A stretch of DNA of 64,000 nucleotides from Nitratireductor indicus C115 (lineage in GTDB: Bacteria; Pseudomonadota; Alphaproteobacteria; Rhizobiales; Rhizobiaceae): positions 1-64,000 of the forward strand of contig NZ_AMSI01000009.1 in the NCBI RefSeq assembly GCF_000300515.1, written 5' to 3'. The translations under genes and the position numbers were made by a program. Positions 1-12,656 of the stretch are shown here, one piece after another. How positions within the stretch are numbered: the first letter of the stretch is position 1; each line of letters opens with the position of its first letter. The notes under the pieces were generated by a model. That model saw nothing but the letters and a program-made list of their open reading frames with translations. It did no database searches and was not told where the DNA came from.

Positions 1-671
1 TTCACCCATTCCAGAGTGATCGGAACCATTGCCAGCGCCGCGTCCAGTTCCTGCCAGAGTTCGGCGTTCGCCAGTTGCTTCTCCGGGCCGCGCTTCCAGC
101 CCTTTTCCTTCCAGCCGTGACGCCAGGTGTTGCAGCCATTGACCACATACCGGCTGTCGCAGAGCAGGCGCACGGGCTCGACAACGCCGCGATCACGAAA
201 CCACTGGAGCGCCATCAGCACCCCGGTCATTTCCATGATGTTGTTCGTGGTGTCGGGATCGCCCCCACAGTCGGCGTGGATCTCGCGGCCGTCGCGATAG
301 ACGGCAAATCCCCACCCACCGGGGCCGGGGTTCGGATCACATGCGCCATCCGCGAAGATCACCAACCCGTCAGATAGGCCGGTTGCGCTGACCGGTGCGG
401 GTCGAGCGCCGCTCTTGCCACCACGCTTGCGCGGTGACCTGCACTTCTTCGAGCCGTCCAGAGCGCCGGCAGCATGATAGGGCAACGCCTTCTGGATCTG
501 CTGCAGAACCGGAAAGCAGGTTGCCCCCTTGGCCGGGAACCTGAAACGTGTCCCGGCAAGACGCTGCGCCATGAAGGCGGCCTGTCTCTCGGTCTTGAAG
601 GCGGCTACGTCCATGCCCTGAGCTCGGAGCCAGTCACGGAGGCGGTGCAGGCCGTCAGGAAACTCATACAT
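1..671 (-). CDS. RNase HI-domain protein with N-terminal extension (partial, C-terminus off window)
   Basis: The frame is open from ATG 671 to the left edge (223 residues visible). Residues about 102-223 are an RNase HI fold: first catalytic Asp in FADGACDPNPGPGGWG (D108), Glu in NNIMEM (E147), Asp in LLCDSRYV (D172). The last catalytic Asp would lie beyond the edge. RNase HI cuts RNA in RNA-DNA hybrids, and phages and plasmids use it for primer removal. The first 100 residues are unrelated to RNase H and end in a Lys/Arg/Pro-rich linker (about 75-95); this may be a small nucleic-acid-binding domain, but I do not recognise it. The start overlaps the upstream gene by 8 bp (GATGTATGAG), so translation is probably coupled. 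It belongs to the mobile element and is not the housekeeping rnhA. Confidence 0.85.
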   Translation of the reverse strand, partial: MYEFPDGLHRLRDWLRAQGMDVAAFKTERQAAFMAQRLAGTRFRFPAKGATCFPVLQQIQKALPYHAAGALDGSKKCRSPRKRGGKSGARPAPVSATGLSDGLVIFADGACDPNPGPGGWGFAVYRDGREIHADCGGDPDTTNNIMEMTGVLMALQWFRDRGVVEPVRLLCDSRYVVNGCNTWRHGWKEKGWKRGPEKQLANAELWQELDAALAMVPITLEWV

Positions 672-1134
672 CGCTCGCCTCCCCGAAATGTCCGGGCAGC
701 GCCTCGTGCAACTCCGTCAGGGCCTGCTTCCTGAATTGCTCCACAATCGGCAGCACAACCTTGTCGGCGCGCGCCTTGATCTCCCGGTCGGCACGCTCGC
801 CAATCTCGAACAGGCGATCACGCAGAGCCAGAAGCTCCTTCTGATCGTTCGAGAACGCCACAACGTCCTCGCGATAACGCCGACCGGAATACGCCTCGCG
901 CCGCGCTCCATGGCGCAACTCGCCTTCGGCCATAAAGGTCTTGGGCATCACCTTGGTAACCCGGAGAACGGGCATCATGGTTTCGGGATCATCACGATCC
1001 CAATTGCTGGTGAAGTCGTAGCCGCAACTAGCAAGGCCGCTGAGGTTCTCGGAAATATCCTTGCTCGGGTCGAAGTGCGCATCATCGAGAACAAGCGCAT
1101 AGCCACCGGCTTCAATGTCTACGAATTTCGTCAT
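664..1134 (-). CDS. Hypothetical element protein, 156 aa
   Basis: I do not recognise the family. The protein is acidic at the N-terminus and has a likely amphipathic helical C-terminal half (about 95-150) rich in Glu, Arg and Leu, without signal peptide or membrane segment. It overlaps the preceding frame by ATGA (1131-1134) and the RNase HI gene by 8 bp, so it sits in a tightly coupled operon between a replication-initiator-like gene and RNase HI. Position suggests a role in element replication or early phage function, but nothing in the sequence proves it. Confidence 0.7.
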   Translation of the reverse strand: MTKFVDIEAGGYALVLDDAHFDPSKDISENLSGLASCGYDFTSNWDRDDPETMMPVLRVTKVMPKTFMAEGELRHGARREAYSGRRYREDVVAFSNDQKELLALRDRLFEIGERADREIKARADKVVLPIVEQFRKQALTELHEALPGHFGEASDV

Positions 1135-1898
1135 GTCGATTCCTTTTCGTCTCGCGCGCGCGGATGAAGAGCTGTGTCGCTTCGCGATGCAGGGATTTCA
1201 TCCCCGCACCCCAGACCGGGAGATGATCTCCCGGACCCTCCACGTGCCGCTGCGCGGCCCGAAGGTCTGCCCATCTCCTGGTCAGAACCGAAGAGGAAAT
1301 CACAGAGCTCTTCGCCTTGAAGATTTTTCAGGGAGGGATTGAGTTTCGGATGCACGGGCGTGCCAGCTGGATGAGCGGCTGTGAATTCGATCTCTCGAAT
1401 GGCTACTCGGATTTCAGCTTCCGCGAGGTCTTGAGCCTCGTGCCTGCCGAGGTCCAATTCGAAGCCGTCAACCTTGAGCTTTGCTCTCCAAAGCTGACGA
1501 TCTTTTTCGAAGAAAACTCTTCCAACGCAGCGATGAATTTCAGCGCCGCCATCACCGTATATACTCTTCCTTATATGGGACAGCGTGGGGGCACCGGACA
1601 TTTGTCCGCTTAACTGGCTCTGGGGCACACCGGACATTTGTCCGCTTAATATCTTTCCGGATTTAGCGGCAAATACGTCCTCTTTGCTCACGTCAAAATC
1701 GACATCAAGCGAGAGGCAAATGACATCGGTGGCGCGCCCTCGTTTTCCCCATTCCGATTGCTTGGATCGCGCGATGACGCCCATGGTCTCCAGAGCGGTT
1801 AGACCACGCCGGACATTCCGATCCGACATGCTGACTTTCTTGGCGAGTTGAGCTTGCGTGATCCTGCACACACCGTCCGAGCGTGGGGGCACCGGCAA
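1131..1898 (-). CDS. Winged-helix replication-initiator-like protein, second module and C-terminal domain (frame-shifted from first)
   Basis: The frame has no ATG at its head: only TTG 1898 or GTG 1892, both inside or next to a palindrome and with no clear ribosome-binding site. Its first 85 residues repeat the winged-helix module of the upstream frame (shared DGVCRITQ, then GKRGRA.DVICL, AAKSGK, SG..GVP, SG..GAPTL). Two palindromes are encoded at 1595-1644. The remainder (about 100-200) is a distinct C-terminal domain. The last 45 residues look low-complexity and could be out of frame, yet the TGA overlaps the next ATG (ATGA). Removing one C from the C5 run near 1886-1890 joins it to the upstream module as one protein of about 380 residues. 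It is either the 3' part of a frameshifted gene, a +1-shifted product, or a separate gene. Confidence 0.55.
   Translation of the reverse strand: MPVPPRSDGVCRITQAQLAKKVSMSDRNVRRGLTALETMGVIARSKQSEWGKRGRATDVICLSLDVDFDVSKEDVFAAKSGKILSGQMSGVPQSQLSGQMSGAPTLSHIRKSIYGDGGAEIHRCVGRVFFEKDRQLWRAKLKVDGFELDLGRHEAQDLAEAEIRVAIREIEFTAAHPAGTPVHPKLNPSLKNLQGEELCDFLFGSDQEMGRPSGRAAARGGSGRSSPGLGCGDEIPASRSDTALHPRARDEKEST
1595..1644. repeat. Iteron pair, type 2 (CGGACA-TT-TGTCCG)
   Basis: Two identical 14-bp palindromes, CGGACATTTGTCCG, lie at 1595-1608 and 1631-1644, 36 bp apart, each embedded in the longer direct repeat GGGGCAC(A)CCGGACA...CGCTTAA. They are encoded in frame as LSGQMSG. Even spacing, palindromic form and position just after a winged-helix coding segment fit initiator-binding iterons. 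Confidence 0.65.
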
Positions 1899-2268
1899 AA
1901 TTGCCGCTTAATTCACCGTGGGGCACACCGGCAGGTTTGCCGCTTATTCCCTTTCCGGATTTAGCGGCAAGAACGGCCTCTCGATCAATGTCGAAATCGA
2001 GATCAAGTGCGAGGCAGATGACATCGACTGCGCGCCCACGCTTCCCCCAGCCGGGTTGTTTCGTCCGATGAACGACGCCAAGCACCTCAAGTGTCGATAT
2101 GCCGGCCCTGACCGTGCGCTCACCCAAGCCTGATTTGGAAGTGAGCTTCTTCTGCGTGATCCTGCACACACCGTCCTCGGTGGACGCTGCCAGCGCCTGG
2201 AGGATTGCTGTGAGCGACTTGTCCTCGATCTTCTGGCGCTTGAACCACTCTCGAGCTGCCTTGCTCAT
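1705..2268 (-). CDS. Winged-helix replication-initiator-like protein, first module
   Basis: The start is ATG 2268 with a strong SD (GGAGGAGGGG) just upstream, overlapping the stop of a 53-aa gene by ATGA. Residues 1-30 are basic (MSKAAREWFKRQK). Residues about 30-100 form an HTH of the GntR/MarR-like winged type: ITQKKLTSKSGLGERTVRAG is the turn and recognition helix. A Gly/Pro-containing stretch encoding two palindromes follows. After GAPTL the frame continues for 60 nonsense-like residues to 1705, because the adjacent 298-bp duplicate is in the +1 frame. Phage and plasmid replication initiators (for example lambda O) have an N-terminal winged helix that binds repeats inside their own gene, which is the arrangement seen here. 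A transcription regulator remains possible. Confidence 0.6.
   Translation of the reverse strand: MSKAAREWFKRQKIEDKSLTAILQALAASTEDGVCRITQKKLTSKSGLGERTVRAGISTLEVLGVVHRTKQPGWGKRGRAVDVICLALDLDFDIDREAVLAAKSGKGISGKPAGVPHGELSGNFAGAPTLGRCVQDHASSTRQESQHVGSECPAWSNRSGDHGRHRAIQAIGMGKTRARHRCHLPLA
1893..1942. repeat. Iteron pair, type 1 (CGGCAA-NN-TTGCCG)
   Basis: Palindromes CGGCAAAATTGCCG (1893-1906) and CGGCAGGTTTGCCG (1929-1942, one imperfect pair) are again 36 bp apart and sit at the equivalent place of the other 298-bp copy. The half-site differs from the downstream pair (GGCAA instead of GGACA), while flanks such as CGCTTA and GGGGCAC are kept. Confidence 0.65.
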
Positions 2269-2426
2269 AGGCCCCTCCTCCGCAAGCGCATGGAAAGGAA
2301 GGCGTTGGCGGCACGAAGCCGCCAAATCTTGCACCAGAGGAAAGGGATCGCGATAAGCAGGCCCGGAATGGTCTGCGGCCCTAAGCGGGAATCTGCGGCC
2401 GGCATCTGGGGAACCGTTCTCGTCAT
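2265..2426 (-). CDS. Small 53-aa protein with one hydrophobic segment
   Basis: This short frame runs from ATG 2426, overlapping the upstream stop by ATGA, to TGA 2265, overlapping the downstream initiator-like start by ATGA. A likely membrane segment (TIPGLLIAIPFLWCKIW, residues about 19-35) is followed by a positively charged tail (MRLRRRGL). Double ATGA coupling is the main support. It could act only to couple translation to the initiator gene. No homologue is recognised, and the equivalent place after the second module (below 3849) is not conserved. Confidence 0.5.
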   Translation of the reverse strand: MTRTVPQMPAADSRLGPQTIPGLLIAIPFLWCKIWRLRAANAFLSMRLRRRGL

Positions 2427-2698
2427 GAGGCACCTCCACGCTTCTGGGCATCGTGGATTTCGTGCCAGATGCGTTTGACCTCCTCGGCCTTCTCCAGCAT
2501 CAGGCGGGCAACGTAGAGGCCTGTATCGGCCTGCCGTGCTGTGAGCACGACACGATCATTGCAGCGATGCTCTTCAAGCAGATTGCGGATGGTCTCCATG
2601 GTGAGGTGAGCCATGTCGACCAGATCGTAGACCGGGCATTCCAAGGGGCTCATGTTCCAGACGGGAACATGGTCGAAATGAGAGTTGTTTGCAGCCAT
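2423..2698 (-). CDS. Hypothetical 91-aa protein, paralogue of 3849-4097 (module A)
   Basis: A small, probably helical cytoplasmic protein. After a 17-residue variable N-terminus it matches the module B protein closely from LECPVYD to the end: shared VDMAHLT, LLEEHR, VLTARQADTGLY and the terminal HDAQKRGG. No domain is recognised. It starts 1 nt after the upstream stop and ends in an ATGA overlap with the 53-aa gene. It closes the duplicated part of the module: DNA similarity to the other copy stops at the ATG overlap. Confidence 0.75.
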   Translation of the reverse strand: MAANNSHFDHVPVWNMSPLECPVYDLVDMAHLTMETIRNLLEEHRCNDRVVLTARQADTGLYVARLMLEKAEEVKRIWHEIHDAQKRGGAS

Positions 2699-2699
2699 G

Positions 2700-3041
2700 T
2701 CACACCCCCTTGCTGCTTGGGAACACCATGTCCCAATTCGGGGTTTTGTAGGCATCGAGGTTTTCCAGAAAGATCGCATGCCGATCCGAGGCAGGCGGGA
2801 AGATGCGGATTGCCCATTTCTCGCCCTGCATCTCCTCTTCGATCCAGTCTGCAAGAGCGTTGGAAAGCTCCTGCGAAAGACGACGGATGCGCTCCATGCG
2901 CATTTCGCCACGTGGGTCTGTACGCGCGGCCGGCGGGGTGCTATCGCTTGTGCTGTTCATTTGCTCACCTGTTGGGATGCTGTTGAACACAGGCTCGGAA
3001 GGTGTGCCAGCACCTCCGGGCCGTTTTTGTTTCTGGGTCAT
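2700..3041 (-). CDS. Hypothetical 113-aa protein (module A), shares N-terminus with 4094-4612
   Basis: Residues 1-40 are Ser/Thr/Pro-rich and disordered-looking and match the module B protein (MT..QK..., then PTGE.MN...DST). Residues 45-113 are unrelated to the other copy, with a helix rich in Arg/Glu and a C-terminal Trp-containing segment. An internal ATG at 2960 follows AGGTGAG at SD distance, and the same SD-ATG pair is present in the paralogue, so a shorter form beginning MNSTSDST is plausible. It overlaps the upstream HTH gene by ATGA. Confidence 0.7.
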   Translation of the reverse strand: MTQKQKRPGGAGTPSEPVFNSIPTGEQMNSTSDSTPPAARTDPRGEMRMERIRRLSQELSNALADWIEEEMQGEKWAIRIFPPASDRHAIFLENLDAYKTPNWDMVFPSSKGV

Positions 3042-3229
3042 GCTGCGTCTTCCTCCATGAAGAAGGCGATCAGCTTGCTGCGGCTGACGACATAGCGCTC
3101 ACCGATTTGCTTCACCATCGGCAGCTTGCCGCCTGCGATCATGTGATAGGTCTGCTGGTAGGAGCGGCCGATAATGTCGGCAATCGCCTGCACGCCCCAG
3201 ACCAAATCGAGTTCCTTCTCTTCGCTCAT
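3038..3229 (-). CDS. AlpA/excisionase-like HTH protein, module A
   Basis: A 63-aa protein starting at ATG 3229, chosen for the SD AAGGAAAC upstream; an in-frame start at 3283 would lie across the first operator. The fold is a MerR/AlpA-like winged helix: VQAIADIIGRSYQQTYHMI as the HTH and GKLPMVKQIGERYVVSRSKL as the wing and second helix. Such proteins act as excisionases or regulators in integrative elements. It is the first gene of the module A minus operon and is divergent from the RHH gene at 3378, with three operator repeats between. Confidence 0.75.
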   Translation of the reverse strand: MSEEKELDLVWGVQAIADIIGRSYQQTYHMIAGGKLPMVKQIGERYVVSRSKLIAFFMEEDAA

Positions 3230-3275
3230 TTTAAGTTTCCTTAAACCACGTTTGTCGTTGTTGCTTGCGTAGAAG

Positions 3276-3353
3276 ATATCCAATGGACATCATCGAATGT
3301 CGTTATATCCATTGGACATTATTGACGCAAGATCGAAAATATCCAAAGGACAT
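3276..3353. promoter_or_regulatory. Three operator repeats ATATCCAwwGGACAT between divergent genes
   Basis: Copies at 3276-3290, 3305-3319 and 3339-3353 read ATATCCAATGGACAT, ATATCCATTGGACAT and ATATCCAAAGGACAT; the core is a TCCA/TGGA inverted repeat. They fill the promoter region shared by the HTH operon (minus) and the RHH gene (plus). RHH proteins of the Arc/Mnt type bind such short tandem palindromes, so autoregulation by the adjacent RHH protein is the natural inference. Confidence 0.75.
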
Positions 3354-3377
3354 CTTAAATGTGGAGAACTTAGAGAG

Positions 3378-3800
3378 ATGGCCGAAAACAGGAGCAAGTC
3401 AGACGGGTTCATGCTCCGTTTCCCAGATGGTTTGCGCGATCGCATCAAAGAGGCCGCTCGGAGGCATGACCGATCAATGAATGCTGAGCTCATCGCTCGG
3501 ATTACGGAGCATGATAATCTCCATCAGTTTTGGATGACCGCTGATTCCGAGATCGCGAAACTTGAGGCGCAAGCATCACAGGCGCAGGAATTGCGAGAAG
3601 AAATTGAGAAGCTACGGGAAAAGGTAGAAGAGCTTCGCGGGCAGGTCGCCTATCAGGAGGGCGTGACAGCCGCCTACCGAGATTCGTTGCTGGTCTTCGC
3701 TCAGCGAATGAAGGGCAGCAAGGAGGATGGCGAAACCCTCTTGAAGGAGATTGCGAAGGAAATCGCTGGGCGCGGTAAGGGGGAAGGCTCTGACGAATGA
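3378..3800 (+). CDS. Arc-type ribbon-helix-helix regulator with coiled coil, module A
   Basis: 140 aa from ATG 3378 (purine-rich GGAGAACTTAGAG upstream); an earlier ATG at 3297 would place the operators in the coding sequence. Residues about 8-45 are the RHH fold: SDGFMLRFPDGLRDRIKEAA then RSMNAELIARI. Residues about 60-100 are a Glu/Lys/Leu-rich coiled coil (EEIEKLREKVEELRGQV), probably for oligomerisation. It probably represses the divergent operon and itself through the three upstream repeats. Its paralogue is at 5464-5916. Confidence 0.8.
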   Translation: MAENRSKSDGFMLRFPDGLRDRIKEAARRHDRSMNAELIARITEHDNLHQFWMTADSEIAKLEAQASQAQELREEIEKLREKVEELRGQVAYQEGVTAAYRDSLLVFAQRMKGSKEDGETLLKEIAKEIAGRGKGEGSDE

Positions 3801-3848
3801 GCGTCCGCAAGCGCACATGGACCAACGGCAAGGGCGAAGAGAAAACGG

Positions 3849-4097
3849 TCATGAGACACCTCCGCGCTTCTGAGCGTCGTGGACCTCGTGCCATATCCGT
3901 TTGACCTCTTCGGCCTTCTCAAGCATCAGGCGAGCAGCGTAGAGGCCCGTGTCGGCCTGCCGTGCGGTGAGGGTGACCATGTCCGAGCCGCGATGCTCTT
4001 CCAGAAGATCGTGGATGATCTGGAGAGTGAGGTGCGCCATGTCGACCACATCGTAGACAGGGCATTCCAGATCGGCATGGGTGGTGTTGGCGCTCAT
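3849..4097 (-). CDS. Hypothetical 82-aa protein, paralogue of 2423-2698 (module B)
   Basis: Overlaps the upstream gene by ATGA at 4094-4097 and is last in the module B minus operon, facing the end of the plus-strand RHH gene with a 48-bp gap. It is closely related over most of its length to the module A protein (ECPVYDVVDMAHLT, LLEEHRG, TARQADTGLYAARL, QKRGG). It has no recognised domain. Conservation of this small protein in both modules argues that it matters to the element. Confidence 0.75.
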   Translation of the reverse strand: MSANTTHADLECPVYDVVDMAHLTLQIIHDLLEEHRGSDMVTLTARQADTGLYAARLMLEKAEEVKRIWHEVHDAQKRGGVS

Positions 4098-4612
4098 GCC
4101 GCTGCCCTCCCGCTATTGCTGGAGCGGAAAGCAACGCCGTGATGACGCGCGACCAAGCTGGCAGCCAGCGCGCTGAAATCAGCGAGGTCATCCGAGAGCC
4201 AGACATTCAGCTTGAGCAGCAGCCATGCGCGATGCTCATCCATCTGGGGATCGACAGGATCGGACGCGGTCGCGATCTTTCGGACCTCATCGAACAGCAC
4301 GTCGAAGAACTCAGCGACCTTGGAAACCACGTCGCCAGCGGGGTTGAGGCTGTCGTCGCTGTTGCGAAACCTCGGCTCATTGCTGATGCCGAGCAGCGCC
4401 TCACGCCCTACGTAAAGCGCATCGGCTACATGGTGGAGGTGCTTTGCAGTCAGGGCCGACAGCTCGGCCTTGCTCAAGGTGACAGTTGCGGCAGCGCCCG
4501 TGGACGTGCTATCGGTCTTCGCGTTCATATTCTCACCTGTTGGGGTAGGGTTAGAACCACGGTCCGGAGAGGTTGCAGCCTCTGCCGGGCCTTTCTTTTG
4601 GGTGCGTGTCAT
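4094..4612 (-). CDS. Hypothetical 172-aa protein (module B)
   Basis: The start ATG 4612 overlaps the KilA-N stop by ATGA. Residues 1-42 match the 113-aa protein of module A; the remainder is different and mostly helical (LSKAELSALTAKHLHHVADALYV and a C-terminal Leu/Ala/Asp-rich region around 110-160). As in module A, AGGTGAG precedes an internal ATG (4528), allowing a shorter form. No family is recognised. The two proteins look like a common N-terminus attached to different bodies, as expected from recombination between related elements. Confidence 0.7.
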   Translation of the reverse strand: MTRTQKKGPAEAATSPDRGSNPTPTGENMNAKTDSTSTGAAATVTLSKAELSALTAKHLHHVADALYVGREALLGISNEPRFRNSDDSLNPAGDVVSKVAEFFDVLFDEVRKIATASDPVDPQMDEHRAWLLLKLNVWLSDDLADFSALAASLVARHHGVAFRSSNSGRAAA

Positions 4613-5109
4613 GCTGCATTCCCCTTGCGAGGCTCGACAGTGATCGTGAAGGCTGCCGGCTCCTGATGTGATCCATCTCCAACGGCGCGCTCGATCTTGG
4701 TGACCTTGTTCGCAAGCATTCGGACAATGCCGTCCGTCCGCTTGATCATCTCGATCAGCTCGGAGGGGAAATCCACCGATGCGGCGCGGCCTTCCATCCG
4801 TTCGCGGACAACCGTGTTGCACCACATATGAAATTCCGGGGAGAGGTACTTCGCGTAGGCCATGGCGATCTGCCAGTGAGCCCATGTCACGCCGTTCCGG
4901 CCACGACCTGCCGAGATAATATCGGATTTTCCGACAATATCGGCTACGTGCTCAACAAAGGCTTGGCTGCCGGGGAGAGCGCGCCATTTCGCAGGCGCCT
5001 TCTGCGGGTCGGAGCCCGACGCCTTCCACATTCCAGTCAGGCTGATCATTTCGCCCTTGAGAGAGATGCGGCTGCCTGCGTAGTCGACCATTTGAACTGC
5101 GGTGTTCAT
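4609..5109 (-). CDS. KilA-N domain protein
   Basis: 166 aa. Residues about 15-105 fit the KilA-N DNA-binding domain of phage proteins: ISLTGMWKASG near the start, GVTWAHWQIAMAYAKYLSPE and FHMWCNTVV as the conserved C-terminal part. After residue 115 there is a short helical tail. KilA-N proteins occur in phage early and antirepressor-type regions, and their exact roles vary. It overlaps the HTH gene upstream and the 172-aa gene downstream, each by ATGA. Module A has no equivalent. Confidence 0.85.
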   Translation of the reverse strand: MNTAVQMVDYAGSRISLKGEMISLTGMWKASGSDPQKAPAKWRALPGSQAFVEHVADIVGKSDIISAGRGRNGVTWAHWQIAMAYAKYLSPEFHMWCNTVVRERMEGRAASVDFPSELIEMIKRTDGIVRMLANKVTKIERAVGDGSHQEPAAFTITVEPRKGNAA

Positions 5110-5339
5110 GCCACCCTCCGATCGCTGGTCGAACGAACCGGCTCCGAGAGCCGTTCAGCGGCCCATTTGTCCAGATCATCAACATGGTAGAGCGGGATGC
5201 GTCCCGAGTAGGTCATCAGCGGACCACCGCCGATGGAAGCGAGCTTGTTTAGAGTGGCGACGGCAATCGGGATGCCGTGTTTCTCCGCGAGATATGCCGG
5301 AACCTCTGACCGGCGAAGACGTGGCTTTTCGTCATTCAT
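5106..5339 (-). CDS. AlpA/excisionase-like HTH protein, module B
   Basis: A 77-aa DNA-binding protein: LRRSEVPAYLAEKHGIPIA forms the HTH, and GGGPLMTYSGRIPLYHVDDL the wing. It is the first gene of the module B minus operon, divergent from the RHH gene, with its promoter covered by the operator at 5355-5396. It has the same place and general fold as the module A gene at 3038-3229, but sequence similarity is low. It could be the excisionase for the adjacent integrase or a regulator. Confidence 0.75.
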   Translation of the reverse strand: MNDEKPRLRRSEVPAYLAEKHGIPIAVATLNKLASIGGGPLMTYSGRIPLYHVDDLDKWAAERLSEPVRSTSDRRVA

Positions 5340-5354
5340 CGTTTGTTAAATCCT

Positions 5355-5444
5355 ATTCCAGTAAGGTTGATGGCATCGGTGCCATCACTGGAATATTCCC
5401 CAGAAGGATGCTTATGTCAATGATGTGGTGGCATTGGTGCCATC
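5355..5444. promoter_or_regulatory. Operator palindromes between divergent HTH and RHH genes, module B
   Basis: GATGGCATCGGTGCCATC at 5370-5387 (7-bp arms, 4-bp centre) is nested within a second inverted repeat, TATTCCAGT at 5355-5363 and ACTGGAATA at 5388-5396. A second core, GGTGGCATTGGTGCCATC, lies at 5427-5444. The sites occupy both promoters. The half-site TGGCA differs from the TCCA half-site of module A, suggesting separate specificity of the two RHH proteins. Confidence 0.75.
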
Positions 5445-5463
5445 TTTTTTGTGCGTGAGTAAA

Positions 5464-5916
5464 ATGGTCAAAAAATCAGCAGCCAAGGATCAGGATAAAT
5501 TCGTCGTTCGTCTGCCAGACGGCATGCGGGATCGGATCAAGGCGAAGGCTGACCGCGCGGGCATGTCTATGAATGAGGCGATCGTCTGGTGTCTGGATCA
5601 ATATTTTCCTGCGCCAACCACCATCGACGAGAAGCTTAATGAGCTGGCCGATATGGTTTCAATCCTGAAGGGTGACAACACCTACGAAGGCGTTGACCGT
5701 CTTGTCGCAGCGGTACAGGACACAATCGGTGACGTTTACAGTGGCGCTCTGAAAACGCCGCCTGAGTTCAATAAATTGGTTTCTGAGCGGTTCGAGCGTT
5801 GGCAGGAAGAGGAACAGGAGAACCTGCGCGAACGGCACGAGAACCCGTTCGATGACGCCAATTGGCCCTCTGAGGAAGATCCGTTCCCTGATCCAGTTGA
5901 CGACGAAAAGAGCTAA
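5464..5916 (+). CDS. Arc-type ribbon-helix-helix regulator, module B
   Basis: 150 aa from ATG 5464 (the earlier in-frame start overlaps the second operator). The RHH domain is at residues about 10-48: DKFVVRLPDGMRDRIKAKAD then MSMNEAIVWCLDQYF. A helical middle and a strongly acidic C-terminus (NPFDDANWPSEEDPFPDPVD) follow. The first strand and helix resemble the module A protein (LPDGMRDRIK versus FPDGLRDRIK). The stop overlaps that of the convergent integrase by 2 bp. It likely controls the divergent operon. Confidence 0.8.
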   Translation: MVKKSAAKDQDKFVVRLPDGMRDRIKAKADRAGMSMNEAIVWCLDQYFPAPTTIDEKLNELADMVSILKGDNTYEGVDRLVAAVQDTIGDVYSGALKTPPEFNKLVSERFERWQEEEQENLRERHENPFDDANWPSEEDPFPDPVDDEKS

Positions 5917-7187
5917 GCCCGCCTCGGCATCTCCAGTACCTTCCCGCTCTCGCCGGTCATCTGGCGATGTACTTCCCCGCAGACCTTGTTCGCAGCCGCC
6001 ACGAGCACGCTGTCGAGCCTATGGATATAGCGGCTCGTGACTGTGCCTGTGGTGTGTCCGAGCAATGCGGCGATGGTGCTCTCGGCAAACCCGATGTCGC
6101 CCGCCACACTGGCATAGCTATGGCGCATGGTGTGAGGCGTCACGCCTTCCAGATCGGCCCGCTCCATGAAGCGCGCCCACGCCCCCGACAGGCCGTTGTA
6201 GTGGCCGTTCTTCCGTAGTGCCGGGAGGACGTAGGGATTGCCAGGCACGCGCAGCGCCTTCCGCAGCACGTCGAATGCTTCCTTGCCGACCGGGCGCACT
6301 GATGGACCGCTCTTGCTGTCCTCCAGCCGAAAGCACTGGCCTTCCTCGTCCACCTCCGACCAGCGCAGCTTTACGATCTCCCCAAGGCGGCAGCCGGTCA
6401 GCACCAGCAGCAACGCTCCTGTCACTGCTTGAGGGGTGTCGTATTCGGCAGTCTCGCCGGTCAGCGCCTTTCCAAGCGCCCTGTACTCGTCAGGCACAAG
6501 ACGGCGGGTCCGTACGCCATCGGCAGGCAGTTTGATGCCCTGAGCGGGATTGCTGGGGATGATGCCCTCATCAACGGCGTAGGTGAGAATGCCGCCGAGA
6601 AAGCCCGTGGTGCGGGCTGCCGTGCCGATGCCGCCCTTGACCTCTACTCGGGCTCCGTTCTTCCCGGATCGATCCTTGCGCGCTGTCTTGCCGGCCGCCA
6701 CGTCACGCATGAACTTCGTCACGTCCGCGCGGGTGAGGTCGATAACGAGCTTGTTGCCGAGGAGTGGCTTGATGTGCCGAGCGATGCGGCCACGATCAAT
6801 CTCGATGGTGGAGGCTTTCTTTGGCCGGTTCGTTCGCCGCCCAAGGATCTGACCTTTCTCCGCCACGCTCATGTACTGGTCGCAGAGCTGCGCCACCGTG
6901 AGCGAATTTCGGCGCGTCCGTCTCTCCAGCAGAGGATCGGCCTTCTTGAGCACCACCCCGCCCATGGTTTCGATTGCCAGCTTGCGGGCTTGGTCCGCAG
7001 TCAATACGCCGTGCTTGCCGATGGTCATCCGCCGCCGCCGACCGTCAACACGATAGTCCACGAAATAGGTTTTCGAGCCGGATGGATGGACGTAGAAGCC
7101 GAAGCCCTTAAGGTCGGAGCACCAGACGGTGTATTGCTTCTCGCGAGGATCGGCATTGTCGACAACAGACTTGGTGAGTTTCGGCAC
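5913..7187 (-). CDS. int: P4-type tyrosine integrase
   Basis: 424 aa, typical length. Residues 1-95 are the DUF4102 arm-type-site-binding domain (FYVHPSGSKTYFVDYR), 97-205 the core-binding domain, and 240-395 the catalytic domain. The catalytic set is visible: R267 (TGCRLGEI), H352 and R355 (HTMRHSYAS), H378 (GHTTG) and Y387 (SRYIHR). Site-specific integration and excision is the expected role. The gene lies next to the junction with truncated comM and points into the element, the usual layout for int beside att. Confidence 0.95.
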   Translation of the reverse strand: MPKLTKSVVDNADPREKQYTVWCSDLKGFGFYVHPSGSKTYFVDYRVDGRRRRMTIGKHGVLTADQARKLAIETMGGVVLKKADPLLERRTRRNSLTVAQLCDQYMSVAEKGQILGRRTNRPKKASTIEIDRGRIARHIKPLLGNKLVIDLTRADVTKFMRDVAAGKTARKDRSGKNGARVEVKGGIGTAARTTGFLGGILTYAVDEGIIPSNPAQGIKLPADGVRTRRLVPDEYRALGKALTGETAEYDTPQAVTGALLLVLTGCRLGEIVKLRWSEVDEEGQCFRLEDSKSGPSVRPVGKEAFDVLRKALRVPGNPYVLPALRKNGHYNGLSGAWARFMERADLEGVTPHTMRHSYASVAGDIGFAESTIAALLGHTTGTVTSRYIHRLDSVLVAAANKVCGEVHRQMTGESGKVLEMPRRA

Positions 7188-7372
7188 GGTGGGCTTCCTT
7201 GGTGAGCGTCAACTCACAGTATGCTCACCACAATGCAGGAAACAAGAGCCACTTGCCGGCATGATGGGAAAAGGTAAGGGAACACGGCAAGCCTTGCATC
7301 GCATGGCATTGGAAAGGATGGGGAAACTCCATCTATAGCGGGATAATGCCATGCTGCCGCCCAAGGAAGGAA
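7188..7372. other. Element-chromosome junction (att region) inside comM
   Basis: Upstream of int the sequence is noncoding until the comM reading frame resumes near 7351-7360 at LPPKEGSHYDLP. Complete ComM proteins have about 60-70 residues before this motif, here replaced by element sequence with an in-frame stop (TAG) shortly before 7351. The repeat core should lie around 7354-7372 and recur off the left edge; its exact limits cannot be seen. Confidence 0.6.
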
Positions 7373-8679
7373 GCCATTATGACTTGCCCATCGCCCTTGG
7401 GCTTATGGCGGCGCTTGGCGCGGTACCGGCTGATGCATTGTCCGAATATGTGGTTCTGGGCGAACTTTCCCTCGACGGAACAGTGGCAGCGGTGAACGGT
7501 GTTCTTCCTGCAGCGATCGGAGCCAACGCCATGGGCAAGGGGTTAATCTGTCCACACGCCTGCGGACCGGAGGCTGCCTGGGCCGGCACCGATATCGACA
7601 TTCTGGCGCCACGCAGCCTGATCGCGCTCGCCAATCACTTCCGGGGTACGCAGGTGATGACGAGACCGGAGCCTTCCATGGGACCGCAAGCGACGAAAGG
7701 ACCCGATCTGGCCGACATAAAGGGGCAGGAGACCGCGCGCCGCGCGCTCGAAGTGGCCGCTGCCGGCGGCCACAACATGCTCATGATCGGCCCGCCCGGC
7801 GCCGGAAAATCGATGCTGGCGCAACGTCTTCCATCCATCTTGCCACCCCTCTCGCCCAAAGAACTGCTGGAGGTGTCCATGATCGCCTCCATCGCGGGTG
7901 AACTCGCGGAAGGCAAGCTCACGGACCGGCGCCCTTTCCGCGCACCGCATCATTCCGCATCCATGGCGGCCATTGTTGGCGGCGGATTGCGGGCGCGGCC
8001 GGGCGAAGCTTCCCTTTCGCATCATGGCGTGCTGTTTCTGGATGAATTGCCCGAGTTCTCGCCGCAGGTGCTCGATTCACTCCGCCAGCCTCTCGAAACA
8101 GCCGAATGCGTGATTGCCCGCGCCAACCACAGGATCAGCTATCCCGCACGCATCCAGCTTATCGCCGCCATGAATCCGTGCCGCTGCGGCATGGCGGGCG
8201 AGCCGGGCCATCGATGCCAGCGTGGGCCACGCTGCCAGGTAGACTACCAAGCGCGCATTTCAGGTCCATTGCTGGATCGGATCGACCTGCGGATCGACGT
8301 TCCTGCTGTCTCCGCAACGGATCTTATCGGTGCATCCTCCGCCCCTGCGGAGACAAGCGCCACGGTCGCCGAGCGCGTCGCGCGCGCACGTGACGTGCAG
8401 CGGCGGCGCTTTTCCGCACTCGGCCTGCCGGACTGGACCACGAATGCGGCCTGTTCCGCCTCCATGATCGAGGAAATCGTAAGCCTGGACGCAGACGGCG
8501 CGCGCCTGATCCGCGAGGCGAGCGAGAAACTCGGGTTTTCGGCGCGCGCCTATCATCGCGTGCTGAAGGTGGCCCGCACGCTTGCAGACCTTGACGGGGC
8601 AGAAGCGGTCAGGCGTATCCATCTTGCCGAGGCCATCTCCTACCGCACGGCCGGTGCACGGCTGCCGCAGGCGGCATGA
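7351..8679 (+). pseudogene. comM: ComM/YifB-family Mg-chelatase-like AAA+ ATPase, 5' end removed by element insertion
   Basis: 442 residues against about 510 in the family. The N-terminal part of the Lon-substrate-like domain is missing. What remains includes the rest of that domain, Walker A GPPGAGKS (residues 147-154), Walker B GVLFLDELPEF (about 226), the MNPCRCG Cys motif and the C-terminal Mg_chelatase_C domain. ComM is a helicase supporting branch migration during natural transformation in other bacteria. An ATG at 7351 could start a shortened product, but there is no convincing SD and the loss is large. comM is a known insertion hotspot in other lineages (for example resistance islands of Acinetobacter). 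Confidence 0.85.
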
Positions 8680-9007
8680 ATTGCCGGGCGCCTGTCCATC
8701 GGGACTATTCCATTGCTGCAGCCATGGTTGGCGCGTGAGGTACAATTCGATGTCGGTCACGCATACGGATCGCTTTGTTCGAACATCTGCCCCGCGACCG
8801 ATGATGCCCTTGTCTTTTCCTCACCGTATCCGCCTTTAAAAACCGGAAATCCCCGGCCTGCCCGGCAGGCGATCAAGGGCGCCCAGAGCAATGAGAGCCC
8901 TACCTTCGGGCAAGTCGGTGTTCGACGCCCTGGAAGCGCTCTTCCCGCCAATGCGAAAGCAGGGTATCGCTGCACGAAAGGTTTGTGATCCTGCTTCGGA
9001 GTGCATC
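8680..9007. other. Intergenic region comM-ddl
   Basis: About 330 bp without a convincing gene. An in-frame extension upstream of ddl (ATG 8891) exists but lacks family similarity. I see no terminator hairpin or repeat. It presumably carries the ddl promoter. Confidence 0.5.
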
Positions 9008-10084
9008 TTGACCAATTCTTCCAGCAGACTGCGGATTGCTGTTCTCTTCGGCGGGCGATCCGCCGAACACGACGTCTCGGTGCTTTCGGCCACGAACGCC
9101 GTGCGAGCGATGGATCCGGAGAAATACGACGTGATTCCGGTGTTCATCACACGTGAAGGTGTTTGGCTTCTCAGCCATTTTGAGGGCGGAGAACTGACGC
9201 AACCCGCATCTGGAACCGAGATTTGCCCGGTGCCGGGCGGCAGGGGCCGGTTGCTCGCGATCCCCCCGGAGGGCGCTCCGTTCGAGCTTCCCGCCATCTC
9301 AGCGCTCTTCCCGGTTCTGCATGGGCTTCCGGGGGAAGACGGGGCGGTTCAGGGGCTGGCGGAAGTGGCCCTCGTACCACTGATCGGCTGCGGCGTTCTG
9401 GGGTCGGCCACAGCGCTCGACAAGGACATTGCCAAGCGCCTGCTTCTCCAGGCCGGTCTTCCCGCCGCCCGTTCCATCACCATTCGTCGGGGAGAGGCGC
9501 CCAAGTTTGCGGCGCTTTCTGGTGAGCTCGGCCTGCCACTCTTCATCAAGCCTGCCCGACAGGGTTCGTCAGTCGGCGTGAGCAAGGTCACAGGTGAAGA
9601 CGACTACCTCGCGGCGCTCGAACTGGGTTTCCGGCATGACGGCAAGCTCCTCGCCGAAGAATTCATCAAAGGCCGCGAGATCGAATGCAGCGTCCTTGAA
9701 GACGCGCAAGGCACGCTTTTCGTTTCACGGCCCGGCGAGATCGTGACCGGCCAAAGCCATGGCTTCTACAGCTATGAAGCGAAATATATCGATGAGGCCG
9801 GCGCCCAGCTGGTGGTGCCTGCCGTGCTGCCCGAAGCGGTGGAGGCGGCTATCCGCGAAACCGCTGGAAAAGCCTTCCAGGCCTTGGGCTGCGACGCGAT
9901 GGCTCGCGTGGACTTCTTCGTCACCGAGGATATGCGCTTTCTCGTCAACGAGCTCAACACCATTCCCGGCTTCACGAATATCAGCATGTATGCGAAGGCG
10001 ATGGCAGCGAGCGGCATCGCCTATCCAGACGTGATCGACCGGCTGATCGCTCATGGCCTGACACGCGCCGACCGCAACGGCTAG
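9008..10084 (+). CDS. ddl: D-alanine--D-alanine ligase
   Basis: Cytoplasmic ATP-grasp enzyme joining two D-Ala for peptidoglycan. Start chosen at TTG 9008 (358 aa, normal length) with GGAG 7 nt upstream; ATG 8891 would add 39 residues unlike the family. Motifs: LRIAVLFGGRSAEHDVSVLS at the N-terminus, FPVLHGLPGEDGAVQG, the ATP-grasp loop KPARQGSSVGVSKV, and the metal/substrate C-terminal part RVDFFVTEDMRFLVNELNTI and PGFTNISMY. The length and insert pattern resemble DdlA rather than the shorter DdlB. It stands alone, outside an mur cluster. Confidence 0.92.
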   Translation: MTNSSSRLRIAVLFGGRSAEHDVSVLSATNAVRAMDPEKYDVIPVFITREGVWLLSHFEGGELTQPASGTEICPVPGGRGRLLAIPPEGAPFELPAISALFPVLHGLPGEDGAVQGLAEVALVPLIGCGVLGSATALDKDIAKRLLLQAGLPAARSITIRRGEAPKFAALSGELGLPLFIKPARQGSSVGVSKVTGEDDYLAALELGFRHDGKLLAEEFIKGREIECSVLEDAQGTLFVSRPGEIVTGQSHGFYSYEAKYIDEAGAQLVVPAVLPEAVEAAIRETAGKAFQALGCDAMARVDFFVTEDMRFLVNELNTIPGFTNISMYAKAMAASGIAYPDVIDRLIAHGLTRADRNG

Positions 10085-10317
10085 AGTATCCGCCGAGAGC
10101 CGGAAGCGATTTTCGGAAAGCACGGTGCATAGTTCAATAACGTGCCGCACTCTTTGAGACCCAAAAGGATGCTCAAAGGGCGTTCGATTTTCACGCTTTC
10201 AGATTTATGCAGACCTAAGCTCCGTTCAGCTGTCTGCAAAATGTCTTTCGGGTAAAGCTGCCCGACCACCGCGTAATCCCCCAGCAGTTTTCGGACGGGT
10301 TCAGCCACCCCTGGCGG
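10085..10317. other. Intergenic region between ddl and BTLCP gene
   Basis: 233 bp between convergent genes. A 75-codon open frame on the minus strand covers most of it but has no SD and no family resemblance; I treat the region as noncoding. No clear hairpin was seen. Confidence 0.45.
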
Positions 10318-11025
10318 TTACTGGCTGACGGCGCCCACGACCGGGTTGTTGTCTTCGCGCAGACTTACCCACATGCCCGTGTGGTTGCTCGCCTGACGCT
10401 TCAGATAGCGATAGCCGGTCTGGTTCCAGAGCTTTACCGTGTCATTCAGATTGTCGAGAACGAAATCTCCACGGTCCGTGCGCACCGTGAGGATTGCGTG
10501 CCCTTCGCCATCGGGCTTACGCACGACAGTGATCAGGAGATTGGCCAGCGATATTCCCTTGCGCATCAGCGCCCGGCGCTTCTCCAGCACGTAGTCCTCG
10601 CAATCGCCTACGCCCGTCGACGGATAGGTCCAGACTTCCTCCTCGCCGTAGATATCGATGTCGTTCATCGGCTTGACAGCCTGATTGACCGACTTGTTGA
10701 CAGAGACCAGCTTGCGCCAGAGCGCCTTGTTCATCTTCTCAGGCCCCGTGTCCCGTGGGCGCAAAGAACATTCCAGCGGATTGGCCTTGCAGAATTCGTA
10801 ATGGCCGATGGGCTGCGACGTGAGCCCGCCAGTGGCCATGCTGTTTCCGGCTTCGGCTTGTGCCAAGCCAATGGCCAGCAGCACGCCAGAAAGCGCGGTC
10901 AGGGCAAAGCCCGACCGGGCGCGAAACGCGCCCCTGCATAAGACGGATAAGATTCCGCGAGATATCGCGGCCACATTCCGCCCGTGGCCTCCAAAGAGGA
11001 AGCCCCCCCGCCAAGCAGCCATCAT
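10318..11025 (-). CDS. Bacterial transglutaminase-like cysteine proteinase (BTLCP) family
   Basis: 235 aa. The N-terminus has a hydrophobic signal-like segment (GFALTALSGVLLAIGLAQAEA, about 39-59), so export to the periplasm is likely. The catalytic triad of the papain-like fold is visible: C142 in GVGDCEDYVLEKR, H176 in GEGHAILTVRT, D191 in VLDNLND. The family is common in alphaproteobacteria and some members work with type I secretion/LapD-like systems, but no such genes are nearby. The real start may be downstream of the first Met, nearer the signal peptide. Confidence 0.85.
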   Translation of the reverse strand: MMAAWRGGFLFGGHGRNVAAISRGILSVLCRGAFRARSGFALTALSGVLLAIGLAQAEAGNSMATGGLTSQPIGHYEFCKANPLECSLRPRDTGPEKMNKALWRKLVSVNKSVNQAVKPMNDIDIYGEEEVWTYPSTGVGDCEDYVLEKRRALMRKGISLANLLITVVRKPDGEGHAILTVRTDRGDFVLDNLNDTVKLWNQTGYRYLKRQASNHTGMWVSLREDNNPVVGAVSQ

Positions 11026-11249
11026 GCCGCTCTCCGCTTCTTTCTATCGTTAATGAAACGTTAAGAAGCAGAACGGTCGACTGTCAATCGATGCAGGGAC
11101 AAAGTTTCAAGGATGGTTACCGCCGAGACGGTGAGGAGCGGTTTTTGCGCGGTGGCTGTTGCGAAAATGCAAATCGCCGTGACCGCAACCAACTTCATGA
11201 GCGACACCGCAGCAGGCGTCGCCCTGTTCCCGGTCAAACCGGCTTTCGC

Positions 11250-12656
11250 TCAAGCCGGTTTGGGACCGTTTCGCCGTGCGGCGGTTGTGGCCTTTCCGCT
11301 CTTGGCGCGCGAACTCGCCGTCTTGCGCGGCCCCCCCTTGCCGGACGTTGCTGCGGCAGGTTTTTTCGGTGCGGCGGCACGCGGCTTGGGAGCCGATGTT
11401 GCGGTCGCCGAAGTCTTTTCGGCCTGTCCCGCCGGATTGCTGCGCATGAAATCGAGGATGCGCGGCGCGATCTCCGAGCGGAACCGCGAGCCATTGAAGA
11501 CCCCGTAATGGCCTACCGCGGGCTGAAGATAGTGATGGCGCATGTCCGCCGGGATGTTCTCGCACAGCCTGTGGGCTGCTTCCGTCTGGCCGACGCCGGA
11601 AATATCGTCGTTCTCGCCCTCTACCGTCAGAAGAGCCACACGACGAATTGCCTTCGGATCGACAAGTTTGCCACGATGCTTCATCTGGCCTTTGGGCAGA
11701 TCGTGGCGGATGAACACCGTTTCGACCGTCTGCAGATAAAACTCGGCGGTCAGATCCATCACCGCCAGATATTCGTCATAGAAGTCACGGTGTTTCTCGG
11801 CGGAATCGCCGTCGTTCTTCACCAGATGCATGAAAAACTCCTTGTGCGCCGTAATATGGCGGTCGAGGTTCATGCTCATGAAGCCGGAAAGCTGCAGAAA
11901 GCCGGGATAGACCATGCGCATGAAACCGGGATTCGGCCATGGCACTGGCATCACGGCATTCTCGCGGAACCAGCCAATGCCTTTTTCTTCCGCCAGCTTG
12001 TTGACGGCAGTGGGGTTCTGGCGCGTGTCGATCGGGCCGCCCATCAGGGTCATGCTGGCAGGCGTGCATTTATCCTTGCGCGCTTCCATCAAAGAGACAG
12101 CCGCCAGCACCGGAACGGAAGGCTGGCAAACGGCCATCACATGCGTATCAGGCCCAAGGTGCTGGAACATTTCGATCAGGTAATCGATGAAATCATCGAG
12201 GTCGAACATGCCCTCGGAAAGCGCGACCGTACGCGCATCGGTCCAGTCGGTGATATAGACATCCGCATAGGGCAGCATGGTTTCCACCGTGCCCCGCAAC
12301 AAGGTTGCATAGTGACCGGACATCGGCGCAACCATAAGGATGGAGGGGCCACGCCGCGCACCTTCCGGCAGATCGCGCTTGAAATGCAGGAGCTGGCAGA
12401 ATGGCTTCTTCCAGACGATCTCCTCATGCACCGCGACGCGCACGCCGTTCACATTGGTTTCGGTGAGGCCGAATGCCGGCTTGGTGTAGCGGCGGGTAGT
12501 ACGCTCGAAAAGTTCTGCGCCCGCAGCGAGTGTGCGACCGAGATAAGTCTGCGCCATGGGGTTTAATGGGTTGCTGTAGAAAAGCCGTACGGCGTCGGCA
12601 TAGGCCCGCGCCGGCTGCAGCGCGGCGTGGTTAAATTCATAAAGCTGATAATACAT
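11250..12656 (-). CDS. phaZ: Intracellular polyhydroxyalkanoate (PHB) depolymerase
   Basis: 468 aa from ATG 12656 (AGGAAC upstream). Alpha/beta-hydrolase of the PhaZ family that degrades stored PHB granules. The nucleophile motif is AVCQPSV with Cys (C177) instead of the usual lipase-box Ser, characteristic of intracellular depolymerases. Also seen: MVAPMSGHYATLLRGTVETM near 110 and HYLQPAVGHYGVFNGSRF near the C-terminus with the likely His. The last 60 residues are an Ala/Lys/Pro-rich, phasin- or histone-like tail (APKKPAAATSGKGG) that may bind granules or DNA. No other pha gene is close. Confidence 0.92.
   Translation of the reverse strand: MYYQLYEFNHAALQPARAYADAVRLFYSNPLNPMAQTYLGRTLAAGAELFERTTRRYTKPAFGLTETNVNGVRVAVHEEIVWKKPFCQLLHFKRDLPEGARRGPSILMVAPMSGHYATLLRGTVETMLPYADVYITDWTDARTVALSEGMFDLDDFIDYLIEMFQHLGPDTHVMAVCQPSVPVLAAVSLMEARKDKCTPASMTLMGGPIDTRQNPTAVNKLAEEKGIGWFRENAVMPVPWPNPGFMRMVYPGFLQLSGFMSMNLDRHITAHKEFFMHLVKNDGDSAEKHRDFYDEYLAVMDLTAEFYLQTVETVFIRHDLPKGQMKHRGKLVDPKAIRRVALLTVEGENDDISGVGQTEAAHRLCENIPADMRHHYLQPAVGHYGVFNGSRFRSEIAPRILDFMRSNPAGQAEKTSATATSAPKPRAAAPKKPAAATSGKGGPRKTASSRAKSGKATTAARRNGPKPA

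What the first reader, a model, noticed from the sequence alone, without database searches (positions are those of the whole stretch)
1580..2268. Initiator-like gene with a tandem winged-helix duplication, each copy carrying its own palindromic iterons
Two 298-bp copies each encode a winged helix followed by two 14-bp palindromes 36 bp apart. The palindrome half-sites differ between copies (GGCAA against GGACA) while flanks are kept. This resembles lambda O, where origin repeats lie inside the initiator gene, but here protein module and site seem to have been duplicated together and diverged as pairs. If so, each HTH should prefer the sites beside it: a natural example of initiator-origin co-diversification, perhaps creating a new incompatibility type. 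The sequence shows the repeats and frames; origin function is inference.
Basis: partly seen in the sequence, partly recalled or inferred. Interest (0 to 1): 0.85.

Follow-up and report, generated by a model that had tools for sequence, protein, structure and literature searches.

The report
Phage replication gene with doubled self-target

Summary
The repeat is real.

The gene is a lambda-O-type initiator of an integrated phage or satellite island. Palindrome arrays just after this winged helix are common in the family: 58 of 100 non-redundant loci at p<=0.01, against 2 of 98 upstream controls. Across relatives the recognition helix predicts the half-site: 77% correct pairing (permuted sites 50%), and 45 of 54 pairs in later-fetched loci; other parts of the domain predict it weakly or not at all. 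For the window's own pair the prediction is right but modest. So each helix probably does match the sites beside it.

I do not favour in-place duplication. The copies diverged as coding sequence, A is now truncated and out of frame, and the island holds a second diverged set of early genes. Recombination that joined two diverged initiator cassettes fits better. Binding and origin activity are untested.

The parts
1705..2268 (-). Reading frame B: whole winged helix, B sites, then 61 codons past the last B site to the stop
   Evidence: SD-like GGAGG before ATG 2268. The ORF listing gives an in-frame upstream ATG at 2451; 2268 is chosen from homologues
1984..2268 (-). Winged helix of copy B (95 aa); recognition helix = residues 50-62
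   Evidence: AlphaFold2 model, mean pLDDT 87.7; PHROG 678 E 2.5e-6
1929..1942 (.). B palindrome 1 (CGGCAAACCTGCCG on the minus strand)
1893..1906 (.). B palindrome 2 (CGGCAATTTTGCCG on the minus strand)
2153..2176 (-). 24-bp block, identical to 1855-1878 (codes for DGVCRITQ)
   Evidence: identical run not significant on its own (codon shuffle p 0.068)
1855..1878 (-). 24-bp block at the start of copy A; the junction of the two cassettes lies just upstream of it
1131..1898 (-). Reading frame A: partial winged helix, A sites, C-terminal region
   Evidence: no stop inside
1675..1878 (-). Partial winged helix of copy A (alignable from B residue 32), without the first helices
   Evidence: PHROG 678 E 6.5e-6
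1631..1644 (.). A palindrome 1 (CGGACAAATGTCCG on the minus strand)
1595..1608 (.). A palindrome 2 (CGGACAAATGTCCG on the minus strand)
1281..1562 (-). C-terminal region shared with the Consotaella salsifontis gene
5913..7187 (-). Tyrosine integrase of the island
   Evidence: Pfam Phage_integrase E 2.9e-16 and Arm-DNA-bind_3 E 6e-14

Best explanation
This is a lambda-O-type replication initiator gene of an integrated phage or satellite island. In such genes a winged helix reads palindromes written into the same gene just after it, so reader and sites form one cassette. Here two diverged cassettes have been joined. Cassette B (whole winged helix, GGCAA sites) stands in front of the rest of a related cassette A (no first helices, GGACA sites) and the C-terminal region, in another frame. 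I think recombination between two related initiators made it, as a scar or intermediate of a specificity swap. B protein probably binds B sites as dimers; A sites are the target of an A-type helix that this locus probably no longer makes as a whole domain. Shown: anatomy, frames, family-wide arrays, helix-site co-variation. Inferred: binding, origin function, the recombination history.
For: Anatomy and frames. O-like family: PHROG 678 for both copies, fold match to 'Putative replication protein O' of a phage at rank 2, E 4.5e-7; a relative of the same family (L007, own genome) matches 319 phage records, with names such as replication initiation protein and DNA replication protein O. Family rule: 58 of 100 loci with arrays at p<=0.01 versus 2 of 98 upstream controls, one of which is copy A's upstream stretch, i.e. 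the B sites; 8 of 17 versus 1 of 15 in later loci. Co-variation. Recombination: A lacks helices modelled in B; dN 0.31-0.33, dS 0.79-0.87, codon-position differences 36/15/43 in 99 codons, p 1e-3, so most divergence arose while both were coding; the island has second, diverged copies of three early genes: X 83% over 222 bp, Y 71% over 113 bp, an Arc-like gene 28% at protein level.
Against: No binding or origin data. The nearest full relative (L003/L031) did not pass the automated palindrome test (not among the 67 listed); its 36-bp repeat shows. The C-terminal region has no Pfam match and no helicase-loader partner was seen; the contig ends at base 1. The 24-bp block is not significantly long (p 0.068). 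A and B are equally like L003 (28 and 27 of 67), so neither is shown to be the newcomer. The effect sizes are small (r 0.11-0.18). Frame A has no stop, so decay is not shown.
Confidence: 0.6

Rival explanations
1. One reading: one winged-helix-plus-sites unit was duplicated in place and both copies then diverged as matched, working pairs.
For: Same spacing (36) and kept flanks in both copies; helix and site differ together in the direction that relatives predict.
Against: Copy A lacks the first helices and lies in another frame, yet its divergence from B is coding-like, which is hard to reach after an out-of-frame, truncated duplication. No second locus with two site-bearing cassettes among the hits (L034 and L042 have two winged helices, but significant sites only after one in L034 and after none in L042).
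Confidence: 0.12
2. Two-key initiator: both cassettes are used, for example because ribosomes change frame at the junction, giving one protein with two specificities and the common C-terminal region.
For: Both frames are open through the junction and frame A stays open to the C-terminal region. Six of 67 loci, the window included, have a short rest of the winged-helix frame and more than 100 open codons in another frame after the sites.
Against: Copy A still lacks the first helices of the fold. Frame change is not tested. The direction of the change is not the same in the six loci.
Confidence: 0.1
3. The protein is a transcriptional autoregulator and the palindromes are operators, not origin sites.
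For: The fold is a general winged helix; PDB neighbours include MarR, Fur and CRP-like regulators.
Against: In 61 of 67 loci the winged-helix frame runs past the last site, so the arrays lie inside the gene, after the domain, not at a promoter; repeats 21-25 bp apart recall the annotated lambda iterons (spacings 20, 24, 23); the PHROG hits are replication initiators.
Confidence: 0.1
4. The arrangement is an assembly or sequencing artefact (collapsed or misjoined copies of two elements).
For: Draft genome of 73 contigs; the contig begins at window base 1.
Against: The two units are only 68% identical, too different to be confused in assembly; the unit occurs once in the genome.
Confidence: 0.05

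Closest known systems
Bacteriophage lambda O and ori-lambda
   Same: Winged-helix-type initiator with four iterons annotated inside the O gene (NC_001416); O binds each iteron as a dimer and ori lies in the middle of O (passages of PMC6022878 and PMC7466680).
   Different: One cassette, one frame. Lambda O itself did not reach the threshold of my family model, so the relation is by layout, fold and PHROG, not by direct sequence match. [quoted passage not shown] I saw the title only.
PHROG 678, 'replication initiation O-like'
   Same: Both copies match (E 2.5e-6, 6.5e-6).
   Different: Match covers the winged helix only, not the C-terminal region.
Consotaella salsifontis element, L031:5512-6375 (NZ_FUXL01000010; IMG/VR copy L032)
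   Same: Same N-terminal and C-terminal parts; two repeats 36 bp apart after the winged helix; related Arc-like, AlpA-like and Y genes.
   Different: Single cassette, one open frame; half-site CGGAA instead of CGGCAA or CGGACA.
Pseudomonas phage MD8 gp56 (PMC8508860, passages)
   Same: O-like gene with repeats inside the gene.
   Different: No duplicated cassette is mentioned in the passages that I saw.

Membership tests
lambda-O-type replication initiators | N-terminal winged-helix DNA-binding domain of the O-like kind | tested here: met
   PHROG 678 E 2.5e-6 (B), 6.5e-6 (A); model pLDDT 87.7; BFVD rank 2 is a phage replication protein O. Whole domain in B only
lambda-O-type replication initiators | Array of palindromic iterons inside the gene, after the DNA-binding domain | tested here: met
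   only two sites per cassette, 36 bp apart, while most arrays in the family have 21-25 bp steps and lambda has four iterons
lambda-O-type replication initiators | AT-rich unwinding region next to the iterons | tested here: inconclusive
   AT content peaks at 0.62 in 1501-1540, about 60-90 bp past the A sites; no test of unwinding
lambda-O-type replication initiators | C-terminal domain that recruits a helicase loader (P) or helicase | tested here: inconclusive
   C-terminal region has no Pfam match at E 0.05; relatives found only in Consotaella
lambda-O-type replication initiators | Partner gene for helicase loading beside it | tested here: inconclusive
   None recognised in 1-7187, but the contig ends at base 1
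lambda-O-type replication initiators | Binding of the protein to its sites and origin activity | not testable with these tools
   needs gel shift and a replication assay

The most novel reading that the evidence does not exclude
In O-type initiators the winged helix and the palindromes written behind it travel as one cassette, and a few positions of the recognition helix (50, 51, 54, 55 in my numbering) set the half-site. With Arg at 51 and 54 the site starts CGG; Glu at 50 goes with CGGCA and Asp with CGGAA; Arg at 55 as well goes with CGGACA. The origin type of many prophages could then be read from sequence, and this locus is a natural specificity swap caught half-way, with both cassettes still side by side.
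Probability: 0.4. Interest if true: 0.75.

Novelty: new variant of a known kind. Interest (0 to 1): 0.58.

Why it matters
How an initiator and its origin can change together is an old question for lambdoid phages and plasmids: a change in either alone should stop replication. If reader and sites sit in one gene as a cassette, recombination can replace both at once, and this locus looks like such an event. The family-wide helix-site pairing makes the idea directly testable with natural proteins, gives a way to predict which co-resident elements share an origin type, and offers a large natural data set on winged-helix DNA recognition.

Tried and rejected
Searches that led nowhere: copy B as query in phages, plasmids and viral contigs, alignment A2 in genome contigs and viral contigs, L010 helix in plasmids and phages, L009 in viral contigs; L010 in viral contigs gave only its own IMG/VR copy. 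No solved structure matched B by sequence. PDB fold hits are general winged helices, none at Foldseek E<=0.001; I take no family from them.

Context that could not be closed: the contig starts at window base 1. DNA from the integrase side found no clear second attachment copy in the genome (best other hit E 0.02), so insertion into the comM-like gene at 7351-8679 (label by eye) is not shown. Two small contigs with portal-like hits (C33, C34) could not be linked to the island.

Considered and dropped: a programmed frame change as the general rule (the frame relation differs among the six loci with a frame change); the 24-bp block as proof of a crossover (p 0.068); the wide pattern AGCGG-N8-CCGGTG as site-specific (15 matches in the genome against 12 for the reversed control).

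Limits of the statistics: hits above E 1e-6, near-duplicates and regions under 250 nt were dropped before the counts (149 hits to 100 loci). The co-variation tests use the 67 loci with arrays at p<=0.05. Some automatic half-sites are doubtful (for example L065, L013, L144, L147). L003 was not in these tests. The four-position set and the residue-55 table (0 of 33 with Arg versus 8 of 34 without have CGGCA or CGGAA, p 0.005) were chosen after seeing the data; only the later-fetched loci are a fresh test, and 4 of those 11 are 60-70% identical to an earlier locus. Helix 1 alone also gave 58-68% pairing (67%, not significant).

Full report
What is there. The feature lies on the minus strand. Reading from 2268 downwards, cassette B codes for a winged helix (MSKAAREW... 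to about 1984) and then holds two palindromes at 1929-1942 and 1893-1906. After a short junction a second, related unit follows: a partial winged helix from 1878, two palindromes at 1631-1644 and 1595-1608, and a C-terminal region. The units match at 201 of 294 positions at an offset of 298. Because 298 is not a multiple of three, the units lie in different frames: B is open to 1705, A from 1898 to 1131. The B start at 2268 has GGAGG before it; the first A-frame starts have nothing comparable.

Is it more than chance? The A pattern occurs twice in 64 kb (expected 0.19) and the B pattern twice (expected 0.34). Each array beats all 200 shuffles of its region. In both pairs of sites the flanks AGCGG...CCGGTG are kept and the inner bases differ in step.

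What the protein is. Both copies hit PHROG 678, 'replication initiation O-like'; Pfam gives only sub-threshold helix-turn-helix matches. The model of B (95 aa, 25 rows, mean pLDDT 87.7) has helices 3-11, 17-29, 39-46 and 50-62 and a two-strand wing. The best viral fold matches include 'Putative replication protein O' of a phage at rank 2 (E 4.5e-7, TM 0.82). Copy A begins where B residue 32 would be, so it lacks the first two of these helices. The C-terminal region has no Pfam match. A search with it found 1 of 385 class genomes, the window's own, and one relative in genome contigs, Consotaella salsifontis, with an IMG/VR copy.

The family rule. I built a winged-helix model from relatives, removed near-duplicates and looked for repeated palindromes in 350 nt after the domain. 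58 of 100 loci pass p<=0.01 and 67 pass 0.05; equal stretches upstream pass in 2 and 7 of 98. One of the two control passes is copy A's upstream stretch, which is cassette B. Later loci gave 8 of 17 (controls 1 of 15). Steps between sites are mostly 21-25 bp; the window and the Consotaella gene have 36. In 61 of 67 loci the winged-helix frame runs past the last site. Lambda has the same layout, with four iterons annotated inside O, and the literature describes dimers of O on iterons in the middle of the gene (passages of PMC6022878, PMC7466680 and PMC8508860).

Does the helix match the sites beside it? Over 67 loci, half-site similarity follows recognition-helix identity (r 0.18, 0 of 5000 permutations). 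For pairs under 45% total identity the helix still counts (r 0.14, 0 of 5000) while the rest of the domain does not (r 0.01, 1721 of 5000); under 35% the figures are 3 and 3042 of 5000. Without the window's two copies the result holds. A sliding window of 11 columns peaks on the recognition helix (z 4.8 and 4.5); overlapping windows fall to 2.3-3.2 and all others are below 1.9. Random non-site words from the same regions give r 0.009, sd 0.025, maximum 0.086 in 200 draws, against 0.135. The three best single columns are 50, 78 and 55; A and B differ at 50 (Asp, Glu) and 55 (Arg, Ala), and are the same at 78. They differ at other helix columns too.

Prediction. With close relatives left out, the helix assigns two sites to two helices correctly in 1625 of 2111 pairs (77%); permuted sites give 50%, sd 6, maximum 65.5% in 200 runs. 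Other segments gave 47-68%. For the window's own pair all five helix settings favour the observed pairing, but by only 0.3 to 1.0 standard deviations of the score. In 11 loci fetched afterwards the helix was right in 45 of 54 pairs (11 of 2000 permutations as good) and the four positions 50, 51, 54, 55 in 48 of 54 (3 of 2000); three control segments were not significant. Independent matches to the window: L014 (ERTVRD) has AGCGGCAA like B (ERTVRA); L059 (TRTIRR), L062 (KTIQR) and L189 (ERSVRR) have CGGACA like A (DRNVRR).

A simple rule, with its limits. Of 139 non-redundant helices, 18 fit [DE]Rx[VAITL]R. A mechanical count of CGGC and CGGA palindromes gave Glu with C in 8, Glu with A in 1 (L189, which has Arg at 55), Asp with A in 3, Asp with C in none, and 6 undecided (p 0.018). 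Among the undecided, the repeated sites called earlier are CGGAA in L010 and L221 (both Asp) and CGGCAA in copy B (Glu), while L134, L215 and L227 show no array. L221 and L198 come from one genome and have similar C-terminal parts but different helices and sites (CGGAA and CGGCA).

How the locus arose. Between A and B dN is 0.31-0.33 and dS 0.79-0.87, and differences fall 36/15/43 on codon positions (p 1e-3): most of the divergence arose in coding genes. Copy A as it stands cannot code for the whole domain. The island carries second, diverged copies of three early genes in the same order: an Arc-like gene (28% protein identity), Y (71% over 113 bp) and X (83% over 222 bp). The small gene at 5106-5339, which I first took for a second AlpA-like copy in a note, matches nothing in that test. 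A composite of two related elements explains both the doubled early genes and the two initiator cassettes. Which cassette is the newcomer is open: both are equally like the Consotaella gene (27 and 28 of 67).

Novelty. Origins inside O genes and type-specific O proteins are known. In nine searches of the open-access library I saw no listing on a recognition rule across O-type initiators or on two diverged cassettes in one gene; subscription papers are mostly missing from that library. I call it a new variant of a known kind.

Noticed in passing
window 2423-2698 and 3849-4097; 2700-3041 and 4094-4615; 3378-3800 and 5425-5916: Three pairs of diverged early genes (X, Y, Arc-like) in the same order: the island looks like a composite of two related elements.
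   Followed up: partly
L007 (G000:C17:92132-92521): A second O-like gene in the same genome whose winged-helix frame ends 77 codons past its sites while another frame stays open for 200 codons; five further loci of 67 (window B, L114, L086, L062, L017) show a similar frame change after the iterons.
   Followed up: partly
L198 and L221 (both genome G029): Two O-like genes of one genome with similar C-terminal parts but Glu versus Asp helices and CGGCA versus CGGAA sites.
   Followed up: partly
L031 (Consotaella salsifontis) 2691-11264; L032 (IMG/VR contig of 17,479 bases): Small element with integrase, Arc-like, AlpA-like, O-like genes and, by eye, portal, protease and capsid genes; perhaps a capsid-forming satellite (labels of the packaging genes are mine).
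   Followed up: no
L142 (Microbacterium phage ValentiniPuff, gene 90): An annotated winged-helix-only gene of 87 aa with two CGGC-type palindromes in the 350 nt after the domain, as its Glu helix would predict; no significant repeated array there.
   Followed up: partly
L034, L042: Two adjacent winged-helix genes of the family on one strand; L034 has significant sites after one of them only, L042 after neither.
   Followed up: partly
L124 region after the winged helix: Nine site copies in steps that alternate between 22 and 23 bp.
   Followed up: no
window 7351-8679: Gene that looks by eye like the comM/yifB ATPase directly beside the integrase; possible insertion site of the island, not shown (one search found no second attachment copy).
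   Followed up: partly
window 3-671: RNase H gene (Pfam E 1.3e-24) beside the initiator, cut by the contig start.
   Followed up: no
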